Assembly: GCA_947460175.1 (NCBI GenBank)
Contig: CANHGW010000004.1
Location: forward strand, 1 to 64,000
Direction: 5' to 3'
DNA from: Bacteroidota bacterium
GTDB lineage: Bacteria > Bacteroidota > Bacteroidia > Chitinophagales > Chitinophagaceae
DNA: 64,000 nt
Positions 25,228 through 57,431 of the stretch are shown here, one piece after another. The translations under genes were made by a program, and so were the position numbers. Below the pieces are notes generated by a model that saw nothing but the letters and a program-made list of their open reading frames with translations, was not told where the DNA came from and made no database searches. Position 1 is the first letter of the stretch. Every line of letters begins with the position of its first letter.

Positions 25228-26655
25228 ATGGCCAAAAGAAAAAAATATGTAATTCCGAATCTCTTGATTGAAAACTATGCTGCTGAAGGTAAATGTATAG
25301 CCAGACACGAGGAGAAAGTAATTTTCGTGGAGGGTGCTGTACCTGGCGACGTAGCGAATGTATTTGTACATCGCAATAAAAAGGATTGGGCAGAAGCCAA
25401 TGTGAATGAAATTGTAAGCTATTCCAAGGATCGTGTGGATGCTTTCTGCGAACATTTCGGAATCTGTGGAGGATGTAAATGGCAAATGCTACCCTACAAA
25501 TTGCAATTGAAGTATAAAGAGCAACAAGTCAAAGATCAACTCAAACGAATTGGTCGTATTGAAGTGCAAGAATATTTACCTATCAAAGGCGCAGCCGAAA
25601 CTACACATTATCGTAACAAGTTGGAGTTTACGTTTTCGACCAAACAATATCTTACTTCCAAACAACTCAATGAAGGACTTCCTTTTGATAAAAATGTATT
25701 AGGATTTCATGCACCCAAATATTTTGATAAAGTAATTGATATCAACACATGTCATTTGCAACCCGAACCAACCAATGCCATTAAAAATTTTGTACGAGAT
25801 TATGCACTTCAACATCAACTCACTTATCACGACATCAAAAATCATCATGGGCTGTTACGTACCTTGATGATACGTGTTGCAAGTACCGGTGAAGTTCTCA
25901 TCAATCTTGTGTTTGGTGAAGATAATAAACCTGCTATTGAACATTTAATGTCGGCAATACAACTAGCATTTCCTTCGATTACTTCGTTGAATTATACCAT
26001 CAATCTGAAAATGAATGATACCATATATGATCAGGATGTGATATGCTATGCAGGCAAAGAATTCATTGAAGAAAAATTACATACTGGCAACGATGATATA
26101 GCTTTTACTTTCAAAATTAGTCCGAAATCCTTCTTTCAAACCAATACCAAACAAGCAGAAGAACTCTATCGTATCACACGTGATTTTGCTGAATGTACTG
26201 GTCAAGAAACACTGTATGATTTATACTGTGGCACCGGTAGTATTGGTATCTTTCTTTCACCTTTGGTAAAAACTATTATCGGTGTAGAAACCGTGGAAGA
26301 TGCTATCCTAGATGCTCGAATCAATGCAGAAAATAATCAAGTTTCGAATGCGCATTTTTATGCAGGTGACGTAATCAAAATTTGCAATGATGCTTTTTTT
26401 AATTTAAATGGCAAACCAGATGTTGTCGTGATAGATCCACCCAGAGCAGGTTGTCACGAAAAGTTATTGGAAAAACTGATCGAAATAAAATCACCAACCA
26501 TTGTTTATGTAAGTTGCAACCCTGCTACACAAGCGAGAGATTTAGCCTTTTTATCTTCACATTATATCGCTACCAAATCGCAAGCGGTCGATATGTTTCC
26601 GCATACCCATCATGTAGAAAATGTAGTGCAATTGAAGTTGAGAGATGAGGGGTGA
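25228..26655 (+). CDS. rlmD: 23S rRNA (uracil-5-)-methyltransferase, RlmD/RumA type
   Basis: SAM-dependent methyltransferase, 475 residues, cytoplasmic. An N-terminal TRAM domain (about 10-65, AEGKCIARHEEKVIFVEGAV) is followed by the iron-sulfur motif CEHFGICGGC with a further Cys in INTCHLQ. The methyltransferase part has YDLYCGTGSIGIFL (SAM binding), IDPPRAGCHEKLL (motif IV) and the catalytic VSCNPATQARDL. The modified base (U1939 or U747) cannot be told from sequence. The last codons (KLRDEG) and the stop lie inside a heptanucleotide repeat array, so the C-terminal end may have been rewritten by the repeat. Confidence 0.92.
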   Translation: MAKRKKYVIPNLLIENYAAEGKCIARHEEKVIFVEGAVPGDVANVFVHRNKKDWAEANVNEIVSYSKDRVDAFCEHFGICGGCKWQMLPYKLQLKYKEQQVKDQLKRIGRIEVQEYLPIKGAAETTHYRNKLEFTFSTKQYLTSKQLNEGLPFDKNVLGFHAPKYFDKVIDINTCHLQPEPTNAIKNFVRDYALQHQLTYHDIKNHHGLLRTLMIRVASTGEVLINLVFGEDNKPAIEHLMSAIQLAFPSITSLNYTINLKMNDTIYDQDVICYAGKEFIEEKLHTGNDDIAFTFKISPKSFFQTNTKQAEELYRITRDFAECTGQETLYDLYCGTGSIGIFLSPLVKTIIGVETVEDAILDARINAENNQVSNAHFYAGDVIKICNDAFFNLNGKPDVVVIDPPRAGCHEKLLEKLIEIKSPTIVYVSCNPATQARDLAFLSSHYIATKSQAVDMFPHTHHVENVVQLKLRDEG

Positions 26656-26734
26656 GATTTGAGATTTGAGATGTGAGAGTTGGGAGTTGGGAGTTGGGAG
26701 TTGGGAGTTGGGAAATTAGGGATGGGAGAATAGG
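26637..26734 (+). repeat. Heptanucleotide repeat array overlapping the rlmD stop codon
   Basis: Fourteen contiguous 7-mers in one register: GTTGAGA, GATGAGG, GGTGAGA, TTTGAGA twice, TGTGAGA, GTTGGGA five times (26679-26713), AATTAGG, GATGGGA and GAATAGG. The TGA of rlmD lies in the third unit. The same unit GTTGAGA recurs in the array inside the alpha-2-macroglobulin gene. Confidence 0.9.
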
Positions 26735-26761: not shown

Positions 26762-27400
26762 ATGATAGACTTAATAGAAAAATTAAAAGATCGGCTTTTG
26801 CATCCTTTGCCAGGTGAAATTGCACAATTTAAAATGGCACCAAAAGGTCGAACTCGACAACAAGATTTACCTGATAATATCCGACACGGTGGCGTCATGA
26901 TTTTATTATTTATCATCGACAAAAAATGGAATACCATACTCATTCGTCGTACTGAAGATGGGAATCATCACAGCGGACAAATTAGTTTTCCTGGAGGTCG
27001 CAAGGACGCGACTGATCAAGATATCATTTATACAGCCTGTAGAGAATGTGAAGAAGAAATAGGCGTACCCATGAATGAAATCAATGTGCTTGGTACATTA
27101 TCACCCTTGTACATACCACCGAGCAATTACTTAGTAACACCTACGATTGGCTATGTAAGCACCTTACAAAACTATAAAGCCTCTGAGCGTGAGGTACAAG
27201 AGATTATTCAATTGCCCATCGAATTGTTGTTTGATGATCGAATTAAAAATGAAAAAACAGTTGTACCATCTAGTCAATTGAATACAACTATACAAACACC
27301 TGTGTATGAATTAGGCGAAGACACGATTGTATGGGGCGCTACAGCCATGATGATTTCTGAATTGGAACATATCATGAAAGAAATACAAACACAACATTAA
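26762..27400 (+). CDS. NUDIX hydrolase, CoA pyrophosphatase-like
   Basis: A 212-residue NUDIX protein. The NUDIX box is visible as ISFPGGRKDATDQD followed by ACRECEEEIGV, with the CoA-pyrophosphatase variant (Asp in place of the first box Glu) and the preceding HSGQISFPGG typical of the NudL/PCD1 branch that splits CoA into phosphopantetheine and 3',5'-ADP. A C-terminal segment IVWGATAMMISELE also fits that branch. It lies between the repeat array and an SDR gene 54 bp downstream. Confidence 0.87.
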   Translation: MIDLIEKLKDRLLHPLPGEIAQFKMAPKGRTRQQDLPDNIRHGGVMILLFIIDKKWNTILIRRTEDGNHHSGQISFPGGRKDATDQDIIYTACRECEEEIGVPMNEINVLGTLSPLYIPPSNYLVTPTIGYVSTLQNYKASEREVQEIIQLPIELLFDDRIKNEKTVVPSSQLNTTIQTPVYELGEDTIVWGATAMMISELEHIMKEIQTQH

Positions 27401-32734: not shown

Positions 32735-35700
32735 CTATTTCACCTTCACTCTTATCCCTTCACTATGACTACTAAATTCAGGCGCATACATACATTGTAT
32801 AGTTGCAATACCATTTGAGAAATCGCCTTTGTTGGTTACAAACATAGGATATTCAAATACATACGTGCCTTTGTTTAGCCAGTTGAAAAAGAAATTAGTA
32901 GATGCATCTTTGGTAGCTTCATAATAACCCAAGCCTCCTTGATATTTATAATTGCTCAATACATTGATAGGCTCAAAGCATGCACCTCTCATATCTTTCA
33001 TGTGTACATATTCCATGGCTCTATCTACTCTTAATTCAATCCGAACTTTTACTTTATCACCCACATTCAACGGACTATTTTCTGTAATGGGTGTCAATAC
33101 TTCGCCTTTATCAGAATTGGAAATTTTATACAATTGCTTCTTCAATGAAAGTGGTGTTTCATGTGATTCTATTTTATCTAAATTTTCAAAATATTGCCAA
33201 TACACTGCACCCCAAGTTGTACCACCAATATTCTTTCCTGTTTCAGCATTATTTTTAACATTCACAGAAATTTTCCCCATGTCTGCATTGATATCTTCTT
33301 TTGGAATTGATGTTTTAAAATAACCTGTTCCTGCTTCTTGTTGTTGTTCTTTGCTTTGAATTAATTTATTTCCTAATTTGATTTCAACATCAGGTTGAGT
33401 AGACAACCAACTTGTTCCATTTAGAAGTAAAGCATAAATAGCATCAGCAGTTGCTTTGGTGGTTTTCCAATTCGTAGTTTGTTTATTTTTCAACAACCAA
33501 ATTTTCAATTCATCTACTTCTTTATCATCGCCACCAATTTCTTTAAATGTTTCTACCAACAAACTTTGTGTTTCAATAGGCGCTTCATACCACCAATAGC
33601 CACCACTGTTTTCTTTCCAATACATACCCATTTCTTCATTGCGAATCGCATTTTCACGAAGTGATTTAATGATATCTTGTGGTGTGGTTTTGTCGTCCAA
33701 ACGATTCAATGCCAAGGCTGTCATGCCTTGCATATAACGATTTCCTTTGAGCCAATATTTAGCAGCTTGTTTTTTATAAAAATCAAATGCTGTTTTAGAA
33801 GCTGGTGCAATTTCATTTTCTTTAAAGAACGTTCTCATGTATAAATATTGAATTTGCATATAATCAATTTGTTGTTGATTCAAATCAGCCTTGTTTCTTT
33901 TCAACTCATCATAATCATCTTTTATTCGAGCATCTAAATATGGCAAAGCCTTTTCTACAATTTGTAATATTCGTCTATCGCTTCCAGTTTCTGTAATGCC
34001 AATATGCATCAAACGACCTATACCTGTAACAATATATTGTGTCATGAAACGGTCGTCAGGCATTCCTTTGAACCAAGTGAAACCACCATTGGGTGTTTGC
34101 ATAATTTCTAACTCTCGAACAGTACGTTCCAATTCCTTGCTCATTCTATTGAGGTTAAATAAATTGGCAATATTTCGTTTTTGGTCTGCTTCATTTTTAG
34201 CTTCTAAAACCCAAGGTGTTTCTTGCAATAAAGCCGATTTCAATTCTTGATTTTTTGATAGATTTGATAATAATGCTGATGTATCTTTCTCACTCCATGA
34301 TGAAAATATTTCTTTTACTTTCGGACTTGAATTGGCAATATGTGTTGCTAATGCATTCGCATAATATCTATTAAAGGTTTGCTCTGCACATTCGTAAGGA
34401 TAGTCGGTTAAGTATGGCAATGCTTGAACGGCATACCAAGCTGGATTGCTTGTATATTCAACCGATAAATTATAATGACGAATGGTATTCGATGATTTTG
34501 AATTCAATAAATTTTTAAATGTAAAATCTTTCGTTGAATTCATTCGAACAGGTAGTGGCAAGGTTTCTGTTACTAACATTGAGTTGAGTAAAACAGGCAC
34601 TACATTTTGTTCGCCGTCAGAAAAATTATTTGCCTTTGCAATAGTTTTTACTAAAATAGGATTCGTAAAACTTTGTGGTATTTCTATTTGCCAAACACAA
34701 TTTTGACTTGATCCTTTCTTGACTGGAAATTGTGTATTTGGAAATTTTTTAAATAACTCATTTACGTTTTCTCCTGTTATAGCATCTTCTAAAATAAGTT
34801 CTGCTGTAACTGACAAATCTTTTTCACTCAAATTAGTCACCTTAGCACTATACACCATCTTATCACCTTCTCTAAAAAAACGTGGTGTATTCGGCACTAT
34901 CATTAATTCTTTTGACGTAGTTGCAGTTTCTTTTAATGTTCCACTTTGCATTTCTTTGGTATGGCCAAATGCCATTAGTTTCCAACGAGTGAGTGCATCA
35001 GGTGCTTTAAATTTTAATAAAATATTTCCTTCAGCATCTGTATGTAATTGAGGAAAGAAAAATGCTGTTTCTTGGAAGTTGCTTCGTAATGATGGTTGAG
35101 AGTTGAGGGTTGTGGGTTGTGGCTTTGTAGAATCGGATTGAATCGGTGGTGTGAATTTTACGTTTGCTGTTTGCAAACTTTCATCATCTTCATTTCTTCC
35201 TTCTTCTCTTGATATTGGCTTTGCCATCATGGGTGCTGCTGCTGCATCAGCTTCCATCATGACAGCTTTGCCACCTCGAGCCATTTTTATATTTCTATTA
35301 TAATATATACTTAGATTACTGTTCAAACCCCACCAATTCAAATTTCTATACATTTTCTCATAAGGATGAACTTCTTTAAATCCACCAAAGTAAAATTGCC
35401 GTCCTGTTTCAACTGAAAAGTTAGAGGCAGTATTAAAATTCAACATATTGTAGGTTCCTCTAAAGAAGTCAAAGCCTTGCCAACTATGCGGTTTAAATGC
35501 ATCTAAACTGGCATCATACATGGTGGCTAATAATTCAGCACTTACTTTTTCCTTTTTATTGCCACTAATTTTCAAAGTCCATTCTTGCTCACTGCCAGGC
35601 AACATTTTATCTCTAAATGTTCCTAAAGAAATTTTTAATTCTTTATTGGTCCAAGGCACATCAATAAATTCATTAAATGAATAGTAACGATTATTTTTGA

Positions 35701-43460: not shown

Positions 43461-44468
43461 ATGAAACTGGTAACACACTCAATTCAGGGCAATGAACATT
43501 TAGCCATTTTAATCGACCATAAACTATACAATATAAGTGATGCAGATATATTGCTACCTGCAACAATGAAAGAATTATTGAATCATTGGGAAGACTCAAT
43601 AGACAAATTGAAAGAACTTGAAGTCAAAATAAAGAAAGGTCAAATTTTAGAAAATCAATATACCCATTATAACGAAGCTCGTATTATGGCGCCAGTTCCA
43701 AATCCTACAAGCTGTAGAGATGGTTATGCATTTCGTCAACACGTAGCAGCTGCTCGTCGCAATCGCAAGGTTGATATGATTCCTGAGTTTGATCAATATC
43801 CAATTTTTTATTTCACCAATCATAATGCTATTCAAGGACCTGGCGATATTGAGTGTATGCCCGATCATTTTCAAAAATTGGATTTTGAATTGGAAGTCGC
43901 AATTGTGGTTTCTAAAAAAGGAAGAAACATCAAAGCTGCCGAGGCGGATAATTATATTGGTGGTTATATGATTATGAACGACATGAGTGCTCGTACATTG
44001 CAGATGGAAGAAATGTTGTTAAATCTTGGACCTGCAAAAGGTAAAGATTTCTCTACTGTGATAGGACCGATGTTAGTCACTCCAGACGAATTAGAATCTT
44101 ATAAAGTACCTTGTAAAGAGAATCATGTAGGAAATAATTACAACCTAGGGATGAAATGTTGGGTCAATGGTGAATTATTGAGCGAAGGTAATGTATCATC
44201 AATGGACTGGACTTTTGCTGAAATACTCGAGCGATGTGCTTATGGTGTAGATATATTACCAGGTGATGTAATTGGAAGTGGAACAGTTGGCACTGGATGT
44301 TTATTAGAATTAAACGGCACAGGATTATTAAACGACCCAAATTATAAAGTACAATGGCTTCAAGATGGCGATGTAGTTGAAATGGCTATTGATGGACTTG
44401 GACATTTATCTAATACAATTAGAAAAGTGGAGACTGATTTTTCGATTTTAGCGTTGAAGAAGTTTTAG
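43461..44468 (+). CDS. Fumarylacetoacetate hydrolase family protein
   Basis: A 335-residue cytoplasmic C-C bond hydrolase. The metal site is visible as the Glu pair in DFELEVAIVVSKKG and Asp in GGYMIMNDMSAR; the active-site loop is RDGYAFRQHV and the C-terminal glycine segment GSGTVGTGCLLELNG. In the phylum such proteins act in tyrosine or aromatic breakdown or on acylpyruvates. No other pathway genes are next to it. It has a consensus promoter. Its last codons and stop fall within the first unit of a short-repeat array. Confidence 0.87.
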   Translation: MKLVTHSIQGNEHLAILIDHKLYNISDADILLPATMKELLNHWEDSIDKLKELEVKIKKGQILENQYTHYNEARIMAPVPNPTSCRDGYAFRQHVAAARRNRKVDMIPEFDQYPIFYFTNHNAIQGPGDIECMPDHFQKLDFELEVAIVVSKKGRNIKAAEADNYIGGYMIMNDMSARTLQMEEMLLNLGPAKGKDFSTVIGPMLVTPDELESYKVPCKENHVGNNYNLGMKCWVNGELLSEGNVSSMDWTFAEILERCAYGVDILPGDVIGSGTVGTGCLLELNGTGLLNDPNYKVQWLQDGDVVEMAIDGLGHLSNTIRKVETDFSILALKKF

Positions 44469-44506
44469 AAGGTTTACAAGTTTTGAAGGTTGCAACGTTT
44501 TACATC
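44462..44506 (+). repeat. Left short-repeat array flanking the S23 gene
   Basis: Units GTTTTAGAAGGTTTACAA (44462-44479), GTTTTGAAGGTTGCAAC (44480-44496) and a partial GTTTTACATC. The FAH stop codon (TAG, 44466-44468) lies in the first unit. The units match, in inverted orientation, the array on the other side of the S23 gene. Confidence 0.7.
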
Positions 44507-44534
44507 TTAAAGCGCTAAATAAAGTTATTAATCA

Positions 44535-44921
44535 ATGGCTACAATAAAATCTTTTGAGGACTTAGATATTTGGAAAAATTCACATGATTTAGGAAAAGAT
44601 ATTTTTAATTTATGTGAAACTAACTTTAAAATCCAAAAAGACTTTTCATTTAAAGATCAAATAAAACGTGCTACCTTGTCCGTTTCAAACAACATTGCAG
44701 AAGGATTTGAATATAGCAATAATCGTCAATTTTATCGCTTTTTAGCCATTGCAAAAGCTTCTTGTGGTGAAGTAAGAAATTGTTTGCTATTTTTAATTTC
44801 AATAAATTATTCAGAAGAAAAAGAAGTTGAAGCTTTAATTTTAAAAACAAGAATATTATCTGGCCAAATTGGCAACTTTATGAAATATTTAAACAAACTT
44901 AATAAAGAATCAAAAACATAA
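44535..44921 (+). CDS. Four-helix-bundle protein of the S23/Avd-like family
   Basis: A 128-residue all-helical protein. The family hallmarks are EDLDIWKNSHDLGKDIF at the start, DQIKRATLSVSNNIAEGFEY in the middle, and FYRFLAIAKASCGEVRNCL. Relatives occur as the protein encoded in intervening sequences of 23S rRNA genes, as free genes all over Bacteroidota, and as Avd, the RNA-binding accessory protein of diversity-generating retroelements. This gene is not in an rRNA gene and has no reverse transcriptase near it. It lies between two arrays of a 16-18-bp repeat in opposite orientation, which suggests a mobile or repeat-associated unit. Its molecular role is unknown. Confidence 0.88.
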   Translation: MATIKSFEDLDIWKNSHDLGKDIFNLCETNFKIQKDFSFKDQIKRATLSVSNNIAEGFEYSNNRQFYRFLAIAKASCGEVRNCLLFLISINYSEEKEVEALILKTRILSGQIGNFMKYLNKLNKESKT

Positions 44922-44923
44922 AA

Positions 44924-44988
44924 CCTATAAATATTCAAAGCCTGTAACATTCAAAACCTATAACATTCAAAACCTGTAACAATAAATA
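44924..44988 (-). repeat. Right short-repeat array flanking the S23 gene
   Basis: Four units on the + strand: CCTATAAATATTCAAAG, CCTGTAACATTCAAAA, CCTATAACATTCAAAA and CCTGTAACAATAAATA (16-17 bp each). On the minus strand they read GTTTTGAATGTTACAG, close to GTTTTGAAGGTTGCAAC in the left array. The array ends 1 bp before the flavin reductase ATG. Confidence 0.85.
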
Positions 44989-44989
44989 A

Positions 44990-45829
44990 ATGACTATAAC
45001 ACCAGGCTCCATTAAAACAGCACAATTACATGCTTATCTTTTAGGCTCTGTTTCACCACGACCTATATGTTTTGCATCTACTATTGATAGCGAAGGCAAT
45101 GCTAATTTATCACCATTTAGTTTCTTTAATGTATTTGGGAGCAATCCAGTTACATTGATATTTTCACCAGCTCGCAGGGTGAGAGATAATACAATTAAAC
45201 ACACATTGGAAAATTGCATTGAAACGAAAGAAGTAGTCATCAGTGTAGTTAACTATGCAATGGTTCAACAAATGAGTTTGGCTAGTTGTGAATACCCAAA
45301 AGGAATTTCTGAATTTGAAAAGGCAGGATTTACTCCGGTGAAAGCTGATAAAGTAAAACCCTTTTTGGTAAAAGAAAGTCCTGTGAATATGGAATGCATT
45401 GTGAAGCAAGTCATAGAAACTGGACAAGAAGGTGGTGCTGGCAATTTGATTATTTGTGAAATGGTGGCCATGCATATCAACGATGATGTATTAAATGAAG
45501 CACAACAAATCGACCCACATAAAATAGATTTAGTGGCTCGTATGGGCGGCGACTATTATTGCAGAGCAAGTGGCGATGCTGTATTTACCGTTCCAAAACC
45601 AAACATGAATTTAGGTATGGGCATCGATCATTTGCCAGAAGACATTCGCACTAGTACTATATTATCAGGAAACGACTTAGGCCAATTAGCCAATGTAACG
45701 TCATTACCGCTAATTGATAATACATTTGTTTATGTTCCTAAAATAGATGCTCATACCGATGCAAAATATTTATTAAGTGAAGGTAAGATAGATGATGCAT
45801 GGCAAGTACTTCTTGGAAATTCAAAATAA
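44990..45829 (+). CDS. Flavin reductase-like FMN-binding split-barrel protein
   Basis: A 279-residue cytoplasmic protein. The fold is recognisable from SVSPRPICFASTIDSEGNANLSPFSFF, PVTLIFSPARRVRDNT and FVISV-like strands, typical of flavoredoxin-type flavin reductases that bind FMN and pass electrons from NAD(P)H. The C-terminal 90 residues (ARMGGDYYCRA, PNMNLGMGIDHLPEDI) are the extension seen in a Bacteroidota subgroup. The leader is entirely repeat sequence, so any native promoter must lie upstream of or inside the array. Confidence 0.85.
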   Translation: MTITPGSIKTAQLHAYLLGSVSPRPICFASTIDSEGNANLSPFSFFNVFGSNPVTLIFSPARRVRDNTIKHTLENCIETKEVVISVVNYAMVQQMSLASCEYPKGISEFEKAGFTPVKADKVKPFLVKESPVNMECIVKQVIETGQEGGAGNLIICEMVAMHINDDVLNEAQQIDPHKIDLVARMGGDYYCRASGDAVFTVPKPNMNLGMGIDHLPEDIRTSTILSGNDLGQLANVTSLPLIDNTFVYVPKIDAHTDAKYLLSEGKIDDAWQVLLGNSK

Positions 45830-56273: not shown

Positions 56274-57431
56274 ATGGCTACTAAAAAACCCGTTGCGAAA
56301 AATGCAAAACCTGCTCCTAAGAAAGCTGTTGCAAAAGCACCAGCTAAACCAGTTGCAAAAAAACCAGTTGCGAAAGCAGCTCCAAAACCTGCTCCTAAAA
56401 AAGTTGCAGCTAAACCCGCAGCTAAACCTGCACCTAAAAAAGCGGCTCCTAAAAAAGCAGCAAAACCTGTAGCTAAGCCTACAGCAAAACCTATGGCAAA
56501 AAAAGCAACACCCAAAGCCCCCGTAAAGGCAGTATCAAAAGCACCAGTGAAACCTGCTGCAAAAGCTCCAGTGAAACCGGCTCCAAAATCTCCAGCGAAA
56601 CCTGCTGCGAAACCTGCTGCAAAACCTGTAGCAAAACCTGTAGCAAAAGCACCAGAGAAACCTGTAGCGAAAGCTGCTGCAAAACCTGCTGCAAAACCTG
56701 TAGCAAAAGCACCAGAGAAACCTGTAGCGAAAGAAGTTGTAAAAAAAGAAACCCCTAAAGTTGAGCCTACTAGAAATACAACTACCACAACGACTAAATC
56801 GAGTGTGAACAAAGCAGGAAAAAAATCGGGCCCTACAAAAACAATTATAACAAGTTCTTTTAATAATTTACCTAAAAAATCAGATGTATTTAAAACGAAT
56901 ACATTTGGCACTCCTAATCTGAAAAATGATACAGGAAAGGTAATAGCACATAGAAAGACATCAGAATTGAAAAGAAAATCCGAAGACACTTTAGTAAAAA
57001 AATACGAACCAGAAAGTACAAGATCAATATTAGACATGGGCGATACAAAAGCAGGACCAAGCTACCGATATAGCGACGAAGATTTACAAGAATTCAGAGA
57101 ATTAATAATGAGAAAATTGGAAACAGCAAAAGCTGAATTACAATACCTCCAAGGTGTAATCATGCGTAAAGATGAAGGTGGCACAGAAGACACTGAAAAT
57201 AAATACCAAAACATGGAAGACGGAAGTGCTTCAATGGAGCGTGAGCAATTTACTCAATTGGCAAGTCGTCAAATAACCTTCATTAGCCATTTGGAACAAG
57301 CTATGGTAAGAATTGAAAACAAAACCTATGGCATCTGTCGTGAAACTGGTAAATTAATCGACAAAGCTCGTTTACGTGCCGTACCTCATGCTACATTAAG
57401 TATCGAAGCTAAAAATGCAAAGAAAAATTAA
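56274..57431 (+). CDS. DksA/TraR-like protein with a long histone-H1-like Lys/Ala/Pro arm
   Basis: A 385-residue fusion. Residues 1-160 are almost only Lys, Ala, Pro and Val in a repeating AKPAAKPVAKAP pattern, as in histone H1 or AlgP tails, and should bind DNA or RNA without a fixed fold. Residues 160-255 are a polar linker. Residues about 262-380 are the DksA/TraR coiled-coil and C4-type region (YSDEDLQEFRELIMRKLETA, YGICRETGKLIDKARLRAVP). Only the first zinc-site Cys remains; the other three positions are Thr, Ser and Ala, as in many Bacteroidota relatives. It probably binds RNA polymerase or the nucleoid. It sits between ileS and pssA. Confidence 0.88.
   Translation: MATKKPVAKNAKPAPKKAVAKAPAKPVAKKPVAKAAPKPAPKKVAAKPAAKPAPKKAAPKKAAKPVAKPTAKPMAKKATPKAPVKAVSKAPVKPAAKAPVKPAPKSPAKPAAKPAAKPVAKPVAKAPEKPVAKAAAKPAAKPVAKAPEKPVAKEVVKKETPKVEPTRNTTTTTTKSSVNKAGKKSGPTKTIITSSFNNLPKKSDVFKTNTFGTPNLKNDTGKVIAHRKTSELKRKSEDTLVKKYEPESTRSILDMGDTKAGPSYRYSDEDLQEFRELIMRKLETAKAELQYLQGVIMRKDEGGTEDTENKYQNMEDGSASMEREQFTQLASRQITFISHLEQAMVRIENKTYGICRETGKLIDKARLRAVPHATLSIEAKNAKKN

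What the first reader, a model, noticed from the sequence alone, without database searches (positions are those of the whole stretch)
44462..44988. S23 four-helix-bundle gene bracketed by inverted short-repeat arrays
Seen: the 128-residue S23-family gene (44535-44921) has GTTTTGAAGGTTGCAAC-type units on its left (+ strand) and four 16-17-bp units on its right that read GTTTTGAATGTTACAG on the minus strand. The arrays therefore face each other, like the ends of an element. Known: S23 proteins are related to Avd, an RNA-binding accessory protein of diversity-generating retroelements, and free S23 genes are scattered through Bacteroidota without known role. Inference: protein and arrays form one unit, comparable to REP sequences with their RAYT protein, in which the S23 protein binds the repeat (DNA or transcript) and helps it spread.
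Basis: partly seen in the sequence, partly recalled or inferred. Interest (0 to 1): 0.72.

Follow-up and report, generated by a model that had tools for sequence, protein, structure and literature searches.

The report
S23 gene bracketed by inverted repeats
A small gene of unknown role, best known as an insert inside ribosomal RNA genes, here and in many relatives sits inside ordinary operons as a roughly 500-base, apparently mobile unit whose two ends are mirror-image arrays of short, mostly seven-base repeats that differ from place to place.

Summary
The S23 gene is real and its right array is clear (3.8 copies of 16 bp). The left side is one good unit plus decayed ones; the inverted match alone is modest (10 of 2000 shuffles reach it). 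Over many S23 genes the pattern is strong: inverted flank matches at 91 of 125 S23 genes in the same order versus 8 of 177 control genes, and in a later set at the same threshold 42 of 59 versus 0 of 35. Units are mostly 7 nt and locus-specific; the window's unit occurs nowhere else in its genome. S23 genes lie in sense inside operons (86 sense, 4 antisense of 102). Arms and gene can move together: two copies in one genome share exactly arms+gene, and relatives show empty sites. The arms of a locus stay matched while units change. One S23 clade sits just 3' of tRNA/tmRNA genes, and an Azospirillum copy lies inside 23S rRNA with the same inverted heptad arms. S23-less arrays and array pairs exist. 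I read these as intervening elements of the 23S rRNA IVS kind living in operons, probably recognised at the arms by the S23 oligomer. Binding and the transfer mechanism are untested.

The parts
43461..44468 (+). host gene upstream: fumarylacetoacetate hydrolase family (FAH)
   Evidence: PF01557 179.5 bits; next to the flavin reductase with a gap of 7-43 bp (from FAH alignment end to flavin reductase start) in 7 relatives
44458..44502 (+). left arm: degenerate array with one clear unit (GTTTTGAAGGTTGCAAC); begins over the FAH stop codon
44535..44921 (+). S23 / four-helix-bundle / 23S rRNA IVS protein gene, 128 aa
   Evidence: PF05635 and TIGR02436; a profile of 22 S23 proteins including this one matches solved structures 2rld and 2gsc, 5 chains each
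44920..44981 (-). right arm: 3.8 copies of a 16-bp unit (GTTTTGAATGTTACAG on the minus strand), inverted relative to the left arm
44990..45829 (+). host gene downstream: flavin reductase-like
   Evidence: PF01613 59.3 bits

Best explanation
The finding is one member of a widespread class of small (about 420-580 bp) mobile intervening elements. Each consists of one S23 gene between two inverted arms built of degenerate, mostly 7-nt repeats (8/16 nt in the window). The element usually sits in sense between the stop codon of one operon gene and the start codon of the next, or, in one clade, just 3' of a tRNA/tmRNA gene, or inside 23S rRNA, where it is the classical IVS. Shown: the unit structure, mobility in the cases cited, the inverted symmetry, matched change of both arms, the sense bias, purifying selection on S23, and arrays without S23. 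Inferred: the S23 oligomer recognises the periodic repeats of its own arms (as DNA, or as RNA leader and trailer), and this recognition lets the element spread and keeps the arms matched. Also inferred: in the transcript the arms can pair and set the insert off from its neighbours, as in rRNA IVS. The strand-transfer chemistry would then come from host enzymes, because the only gene in the element is S23.
For: Inverted flank match: 91 of 125 S23 genes vs 8 of 177 control genes (no repeated control flanks); 73 of 102 when each shared site counts once; 56 of 78 named loci, 2 of which repeat the first set; later set 42 of 59 vs 0 of 35 controls; 10 of 18 plasmid loci, 16 of them cyanobacterial. 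Period 7 dominates the arms. Mobility: L123/L133 in one genome, 80% identical from 60 bp before ATG to 44 bp after stop in both, unrelated flanks; empty FAH-flavin reductase sites; atpD-atpC site with S23, without S23 or array-only in the 11 genomes of the genus read. In 33 of 38 same-site pairs (not independent; 4 the other way, 1 tie) the two arms of a locus match each other better than the corresponding arms of the other species. Unit similarity rises with S23 protein identity at different sites: Mantel r 0.25, 0 of 1000 permutations reach it. Sense:antisense to both neighbours 86:4, 64:0, 42:5. Arms abut ORFs: left end within 15 nt of the stop in 47 of 63, right end within 15 nt of the start in 40 of 63. 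dN/dS 0.06-0.28 in six pairs, including the two copies in one genome. tRNA/tmRNA clade: 9 of 10 loci, against 0 of the 117 other S23 genes scanned with ARAGORN. Azospirillum 23S rRNA IVS with inverted heptad arms; the Coxiella IVS has heptamers before S23 and a 28-bp terminal stem (PMC4990558, passages).
Against: 34 of 125 S23 genes show no inverted match at the threshold, among them 3 of the 5 S23 genes of the window's own genome. Some arrays match in direct orientation (21 of 125 above the 95% null; L288). 11 of 91 left arms have C-richer polarity. No strand-specific G-U signal: 113 sense-compatible vs 114 antisense-compatible mismatches. The window RNA folds only slightly better than shuffles (z -1.66, 7 of 100). 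Unit-protein co-variation could be linkage. No target-site duplication was identified. No binding or movement experiment was seen.
Confidence: 0.6

Rival explanations
1. RNA-level reading only: the arms exist so that the transcript folds into a stem that loops the S23 ORF out of the operon mRNA, to be cut by an RNase III-type enzyme as in rRNA IVS. S23 itself does not act on the arms.
For: Sense bias; arms pair in the predicted fold of the window; IVS precedent with RNase III (PMC4990558, passages); sites 3' of tRNA/tmRNA and in rRNA.
Against: No excess of G-U pairs in the sense transcript (113 vs 114). Sense bias may simply reflect the need to borrow the host promoter. It does not explain, beyond linkage, why unit sequence follows S23 protein similarity.
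Confidence: 0.3
2. Arrays are the target: heptad arrays arise in gaps between genes by slippage and S23 genes insert into them.
For: Solo heptad arrays without S23 are common; array-only version at the atpD-atpC site in two species.
Against: The empty FAH-flavin reductase sites read show no array. Arms travelled with the gene in L123/L133. Arms are inverted and matched across the gene, which a single pre-existing array would not give.
Confidence: 0.1
3. REP/RAYT-like: S23 spreads S23-less arrays in trans through the genome.
For: S23-less inverted array pairs and solo arrays; no S23 remnant near 20 such loci covering 13 sites.
Against: The window's unit has no dispersed copies. No S23 gene of this genome was seen with arms of the GAGATTTGAG type that is dispersed in it. 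The protein's only Pfam match is S23.
Confidence: 0.25
4. S23 is an Avd-like partner of a reverse transcriptase acting in trans, and the arms are ends of its RNA template.
For: Avd and S23 are described as homologous (PMC10053308, passages); one S23 pair lies near an RT (G050).
Against: PF00078 was found in 18 of 59 genomes, S23 in 49 of 59; 35 of the 49 show no RT, among them G010 and G023 with 7 S23 matches each (some genomes are incomplete).
Confidence: 0.1
5. Repeat-RNA/protein pair like a type III toxin-antitoxin.
For: Tandem repeats next to a small protein gene.
Against: Repeats lie on both sides and inverted; the protein's only Pfam match is S23, not a ToxN family.
Confidence: 0.03

Closest known systems
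S23-encoding intervening sequence (IVS) of 23S rRNA (Leptospira, Coxiella; here Azospirillum lipoferum 4B plasmid 2)
   Same: S23 ORF, terminal inverted repeats, heptamer repeats beside the ORF, similar length (Coxiella 428 nt in PMC4990558; median 500 bp here), co-oriented with the interrupted transcript
   Different: The window's element lies between protein genes, not in rRNA; excision by RNase III is unknown; the arms are inverted arrays that differ from locus to locus
REP/REPIN sequences with RAYT protein (recalled; one REPIN paper seen only in a search listing)
   Same: Short repeats flanking a single protein gene; protein-less arrays elsewhere in genomes
   Different: S23 is not a HUH transposase; tandem heptads instead of palindromic hairpins; unit differs from locus to locus
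Avd of diversity-generating retroelements
   Same: Homologous protein family per PMC10053308 (passages)
   Different: No RT beside the window gene; no RT hit in 41 of the 59 genomes searched
Heptanucleotide repeats of cyanobacteria (STRR) and of Xanthomonas/Nostoc (PMC4692102, PMC2670836, passages)
   Same: 7-bp tandem arrays in intergenic gaps; 70 and 75 convergent pairs reported in two Xanthomonas genomes
   Different: No passage seen links them to S23; in five cyanobacterial plasmids 8 of 15 arrays of one pattern flank S23 genes; Xanthomonas was not tested here
S23 genes listed in cas loci (PMC3936711, passages)
   Same: cas6-S23-cas4 and cmr2-S23-cmr3 seen here too
   Different: L296 and L297 carry inverted arms, so they look like inserted elements rather than cas genes; L288 has arrays in direct orientation

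Membership tests
S23 / 23S_rRNA_IVP protein family (PF05635, TIGR02436) | profile match over the curated cut-off | tested here: met
   98.8 vs 33.8 bits; 93.6 vs 24 bits
23S rRNA IVS | S23 ORF between terminal inverted repeats | tested here: met
   window: 18 nt, 89%, modest alone; ensemble
23S rRNA IVS | location inside 23S rRNA | tested here: not met
   window element lies between FAH and flavin reductase genes; a relative in Azospirillum does lie in 23S rRNA
23S rRNA IVS | excision by RNase III without religation | not testable with these tools
   needs RNA from the organism
REP/RAYT | protein is a Y1/HUH (RAYT) transposase | tested here: not met
   only PF05635 hit in Pfam
REP/RAYT | the flanking unit is dispersed in many copies | tested here: not met
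   window unit unique in 3.12 Mb
REP/RAYT | protein-less repeats or repeat pairs elsewhere | tested here: inconclusive
   other heptad arrays and pairs exist in the genome but with another unit
Diversity-generating retroelement (Avd) | reverse transcriptase in the same locus | tested here: not met
   the only PF00078 hits in the genome are on contig C59, the window is on C4
Diversity-generating retroelement (Avd) | TR/VR repeat pair | not tested
   -
Insertion sequence (IS) | own DDE/HUH/Ser/Tyr recombinase | tested here: not met
   the only annotated-size ORF between the arms is S23
Insertion sequence (IS) | target-site duplication | tested here: inconclusive
   none evident by eye at L123/L133; no near-identical empty site available
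Mobile element in general | same unit at different sites with unrelated flanks, and empty sites | tested here: met
   one intragenomic pair with unrelated flanks in a relative; empty sites for the window's own position

The most novel reading that the evidence does not exclude
S23 elements are a distinct class of autonomous mobile intervening element. Their only protein is a non-enzymatic ring-forming four-helix bundle that reads a 7-nt-periodic code in its own inverted termini. Protein and repeat co-evolve, both arms are rewritten together, and the unexplained heptameric repeats of Bacteroidota, cyanobacteria and perhaps xanthomonads are their ends, miniature derivatives and remains.
Probability: 0.35. 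Interest if true: 0.92.

Novelty: new variant of a known kind. Interest (0 to 1): 0.8.

Why it matters
S23 (four helix bundle) genes were found in 232 of 296 genomes drawn across the phylum and have no known role that I saw in the papers consulted; heptameric intergenic repeats have been described without a settled explanation (PMC4692102, PMC4679880, passages). This links the two. It turns the rRNA IVS puzzle into a general question about a mobile element that lives in operons and behind tRNA/tmRNA genes with no recognisable recombinase. It predicts testable protein-repeat specificities, and it suggests that some S23 genes counted as cas-associated or operon members are insertions.

Tried and rejected
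Dispersed-repeat search with the window unit: nothing beyond the locus. RNA-strand test by G-U compatible mismatches: no signal. RT as the mobility source: RT in 18 of 59 genomes against S23 in 49 of 59. Rfam families around 20 named loci (the non-Bacteroidota ones and low scorers): no match. S23 in phage records: no match with one query. S23 remnants beside 20 solo-array loci (13 distinct sites): none at E 0.01. A universal heptad core (about WWKTNAG) carries 3.11 bits vs 2.60 +/- 0.06 in letter-permuted heptads; the null used fewer restarts (8 against 30), the excess is small and the loci are related, so I only mention it. The likeness to (G/U)AG repeats read by TRAP is recalled, not tested. 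Literature: ten searches; among the papers they listed (several lists were cut, for example 20 of 91 and 10 of 985) and the passages I opened, none describes heptad arms around S23 genes outside rRNA. The library lacks preprints and most subscription journals, so this is not proof of absence.

Rows dropped: order-level set 144 S23 ORFs, 134 distinct, 128 near full length, 125 with usable flanks. One search's table was truncated; 100 stretches were fetched from it besides the 30 loci it returned. Named set: 80 loci kept by the tool out of 587, 78 usable; two (L208, L245) repeat first-set loci, both above threshold. Plasmid set: 18 of 29 hit records fetched. Later set: 60 loci, one per genome, chosen from the strongest matches listed; 63 ORFs, 62 new, 59 usable. 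Score threshold 14 was set after seeing the first set's null and then kept for the other sets. In the named and plasmid sets the mismatched null at 14 is higher (15% and 11%). Neighbour orientation rests on mechanical ORF calls and on loci whose two neighbours are at least 120 aa.

Full report
What is there. The window gene (44535-44921, 128 aa) is a clear S23 / 23S_rRNA_IVP protein. Downstream lies a strong array of 3.8 units of 16 bp (44920-44981). Upstream lies one good unit in inverted orientation plus decayed ones. The inverted flank match scores 17; 10 of 2000 shuffles and 2.5% of mismatched S23 flank pairs reach that. The unit occurs nowhere else in this 3.12-Mb genome.

The other S23 genes of the genome. 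The genome has five S23 matches (four). L002 sits between atpD and atpC with arms built on another unit, AGTAGAAAGTCTAAAG. L003, by eye, has a GCAGTAGGCAG-type repeat on both sides. L004, broken by stops, lies behind a tRNA with GAGTGAAAATGAGAG-type repeats on both sides, also by eye. The numerical test passes at 2 of the 5: window 17 and L002 18, against L074 12, L003 10 and L004 8. Where arms can be seen, each locus has its own unit.

Ensemble test. S23 loci were collected from 59 genomes of the same order. For each, the best local alignment between the upstream 150 bp and the reverse complement of the downstream 150 bp was scored. 91 of 125 S23 genes reach 14, against 8 of 177 control genes and 5% of mismatched S23 pairs; direct-orientation matches exceed the 95% null at 21 of 125 S23 genes and 10 of 177 controls. 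Counting each shared site once gives 73 of 102. With threshold and pipeline fixed, a later set drawn across the phylum gave 42 of 59 S23 genes against 0 of 35 control genes and 5.9% of mismatched pairs; direct matches 7 of 59. A named set gave 56 of 78 (mismatched null 15%, because units there resemble each other), mostly Bacteroidota; MAGs labelled Clostridia, Ruminococcus, Chlorobiota, Peregrinibacteria and Planctomycetaceae pass, those labelled Treponema and Alphaproteobacteria do not, and two others (Methanophagales, Desulfuromonadales) had unusable flanks. Plasmid loci, 16 of 18 cyanobacterial, gave 10 of 18 with an 11% null. In the arms the match at lag 7 is 0.54 against 0.33 expected, with echoes at 14 and 21. 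Tandem arrays are about nine times denser in S23 flanks than in control-gene flanks (1.33 vs 0.15 per kb at TRF score 50).

Arms and gene as one mobile unit. In genome G017 two S23 loci (L123, L133) are 80% identical over 455 bp. The homology starts 60 bp before the ATG and ends 44 bp after the stop in both; outside it the flanks are unrelated. This is the one such pair among the loci compared. In the window, the FAH-flavin reductase gap is 525 bp with the element and 7-43 bp in 7 relatives with the same gene order, measured from the end of the FAH alignment; two more congeners (L191, L197) also have FAH directly followed by flavin reductase. In the three nearest FAH relatives (L187-L189) no flavin reductase follows FAH, so the closest empty site is about 77-80% identical only. 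At atpD-atpC in the genus, 11 genomes were read: three hold S23 (G000, G007, G010), four have a gap without S23 or visible array (G004, G005, G008, G011), two hold arrays without S23 (G001, G013), and in G006 and G009 the gap carries what looks by eye like array remnants, in G009 a piece of the right arm seen in G010. Elements are 419-580 bp long (5th-95th percentile, median 500). Arms start at the upstream stop codon (within 15 nt in 47 of 63) and end at the downstream start (40 of 63).

Arms change together. Thirteen sites are shared by two or more loci. In 33 of 38 same-site pairs (not independent; 4 the other way, 1 tie) the two arms of one locus resemble each other more than they resemble the corresponding arms of the other species. 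In L162, L145 and L135 even non-heptad inserts are present in both arms. Across different sites, unit similarity rises with S23 protein identity (Mantel r 0.25, 0 of 1000 permutations), more in the same than in the opposite orientation. This fits recognition of the arms by the protein, but linkage alone would also give it. S23 is under purifying selection: dN/dS is 0.06-0.09 in five pairs, including the two copies in one genome, and 0.28 for L002/L014; dS is high (0.8-2.4), so the ratios are rough, and two further pairs were saturated.

Sense orientation and structured RNA neighbours. Where both neighbours are at least 120 aa, S23 is in sense with both in 86 loci, antisense to both in 4 and mixed in 12; 64, 0 and 3 in the named set; 42, 5 and 4 in the later set. 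One clade lies just 3' of tRNA or tmRNA genes on the same strand: tRNA-Gln (L148, L159), Glu (L004), Leu (L166), Arg (L135), Lys (L128) and tmRNA (L153, L160, L137); 9 of 10 loci, at seven separate sites, since L148/L159 share a site and L153/L160 are copies in one genome. ARAGORN over all 128 S23 genes of the set finds such a gene within 300 nt upstream at 8, all in this clade, and at none of the other 117 (the tmRNA of L137 was found by Rfam). On Azospirillum lipoferum plasmid 2 an S23 gene lies inside the 23S rRNA gene (Rfam RF02541 spans 286-3348 of L305). It is bracketed by facing arrays of GACAGAG/GACGGAT-type heptads; its score in the automatic test was only 10, because the left array runs past the start codon first chosen. 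The Coxiella IVS is reported with tandem GACAGAT heptamers before S23, a 28-bp terminal stem and RNase III excision (PMC4990558, passages). The operon elements and these rRNA IVS therefore share their anatomy.

Arrays without S23. In five cyanobacterial plasmids, which hold nine S23 genes, one heptad pattern gives 15 array clusters: four convergent pairs lying around four S23 genes (8 arrays) and 7 solo arrays. In the window's genome GAGATTTGAG-type heptads with at most one mismatch form 19 clusters, counted by hand. None lies at an S23 gene. By coordinates three places hold S23-less facing pairs (C5, C12, C52), two of which I read. No S23 remnant was found near 20 such loci covering 13 sites. 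One of the arrays is in the window at 26636-26728.

Mechanism. I favour recognition of the arms by the S23 oligomer. The two S23 relatives with solved structures each have 5 chains, and the Xanthomonas protein is described as a homopentamer (PMC4990558, passages). No recombinase gene lies in the element, and 35 of the 49 S23-bearing genomes show no RT, so strand transfer must come from the host or from an unknown activity. RNA-level processing as in rRNA IVS is the main rival and could be true at the same time. The lack of strand-specific G-U pairing and the weak folding z-score speak against RNA folding as the only constraint.

Novelty. The searches of the held library and the passages opened showed rRNA IVS, Avd homology, S23 in cas loci and unexplained heptamers, but no link between heptad arms and S23 genes outside rRNA. 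I file it as a new variant of a known kind (S23 IVS), with a wider reading as the novel case.

Noticed in passing
window 26636-26728: Solo heptad array (GAGATTTGAG / GAGTTGG) overlapping the 3' end of an ORF at 25228-26655 and ending before a gene starting at 26762; no S23 gene there.
   Followed up: partly
window 35085-35120: Short TGAGAGTTGAGGGTTGTGGGTTGTGG heptad-like stretch (TRF unit TGAGGGT, 4.3 copies).
   Followed up: no
L137 (G050:C24:2100-6400): Two S23 genes in tandem just 3' of tmRNA, with a reverse transcriptase hit (PF00078) a few hundred bp away (G050:C24:2609-3265).
   Followed up: no
L153 and L160 (G004): Two copies 96% identical over 1163 bp, each with an S23 gene behind tmRNA: the tmRNA region appears duplicated in that genome.
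   Followed up: no
L288, L296 and L297 (cyanobacterial plasmids): S23 genes inside CRISPR operons (cas6-S23-cas4 twice, cmr2-S23-cmr3); the L288 arrays are in direct, not inverted, orientation.
   Followed up: partly
L322 and L329 (own genome, contigs C5 and C12): S23-less facing heptad array pairs about 40-110 bp apart, like miniature elements.
   Followed up: partly
L115: S23 locus whose arrays (TTCACGA type) look like the reverse complement of the units of its S23 clade, i.e. arm polarity swapped relative to the gene.
   Followed up: no
window 56283-56732: Long 12/24/39/78-nt repeats (AAACCTGCAGCA type).
   Followed up: no
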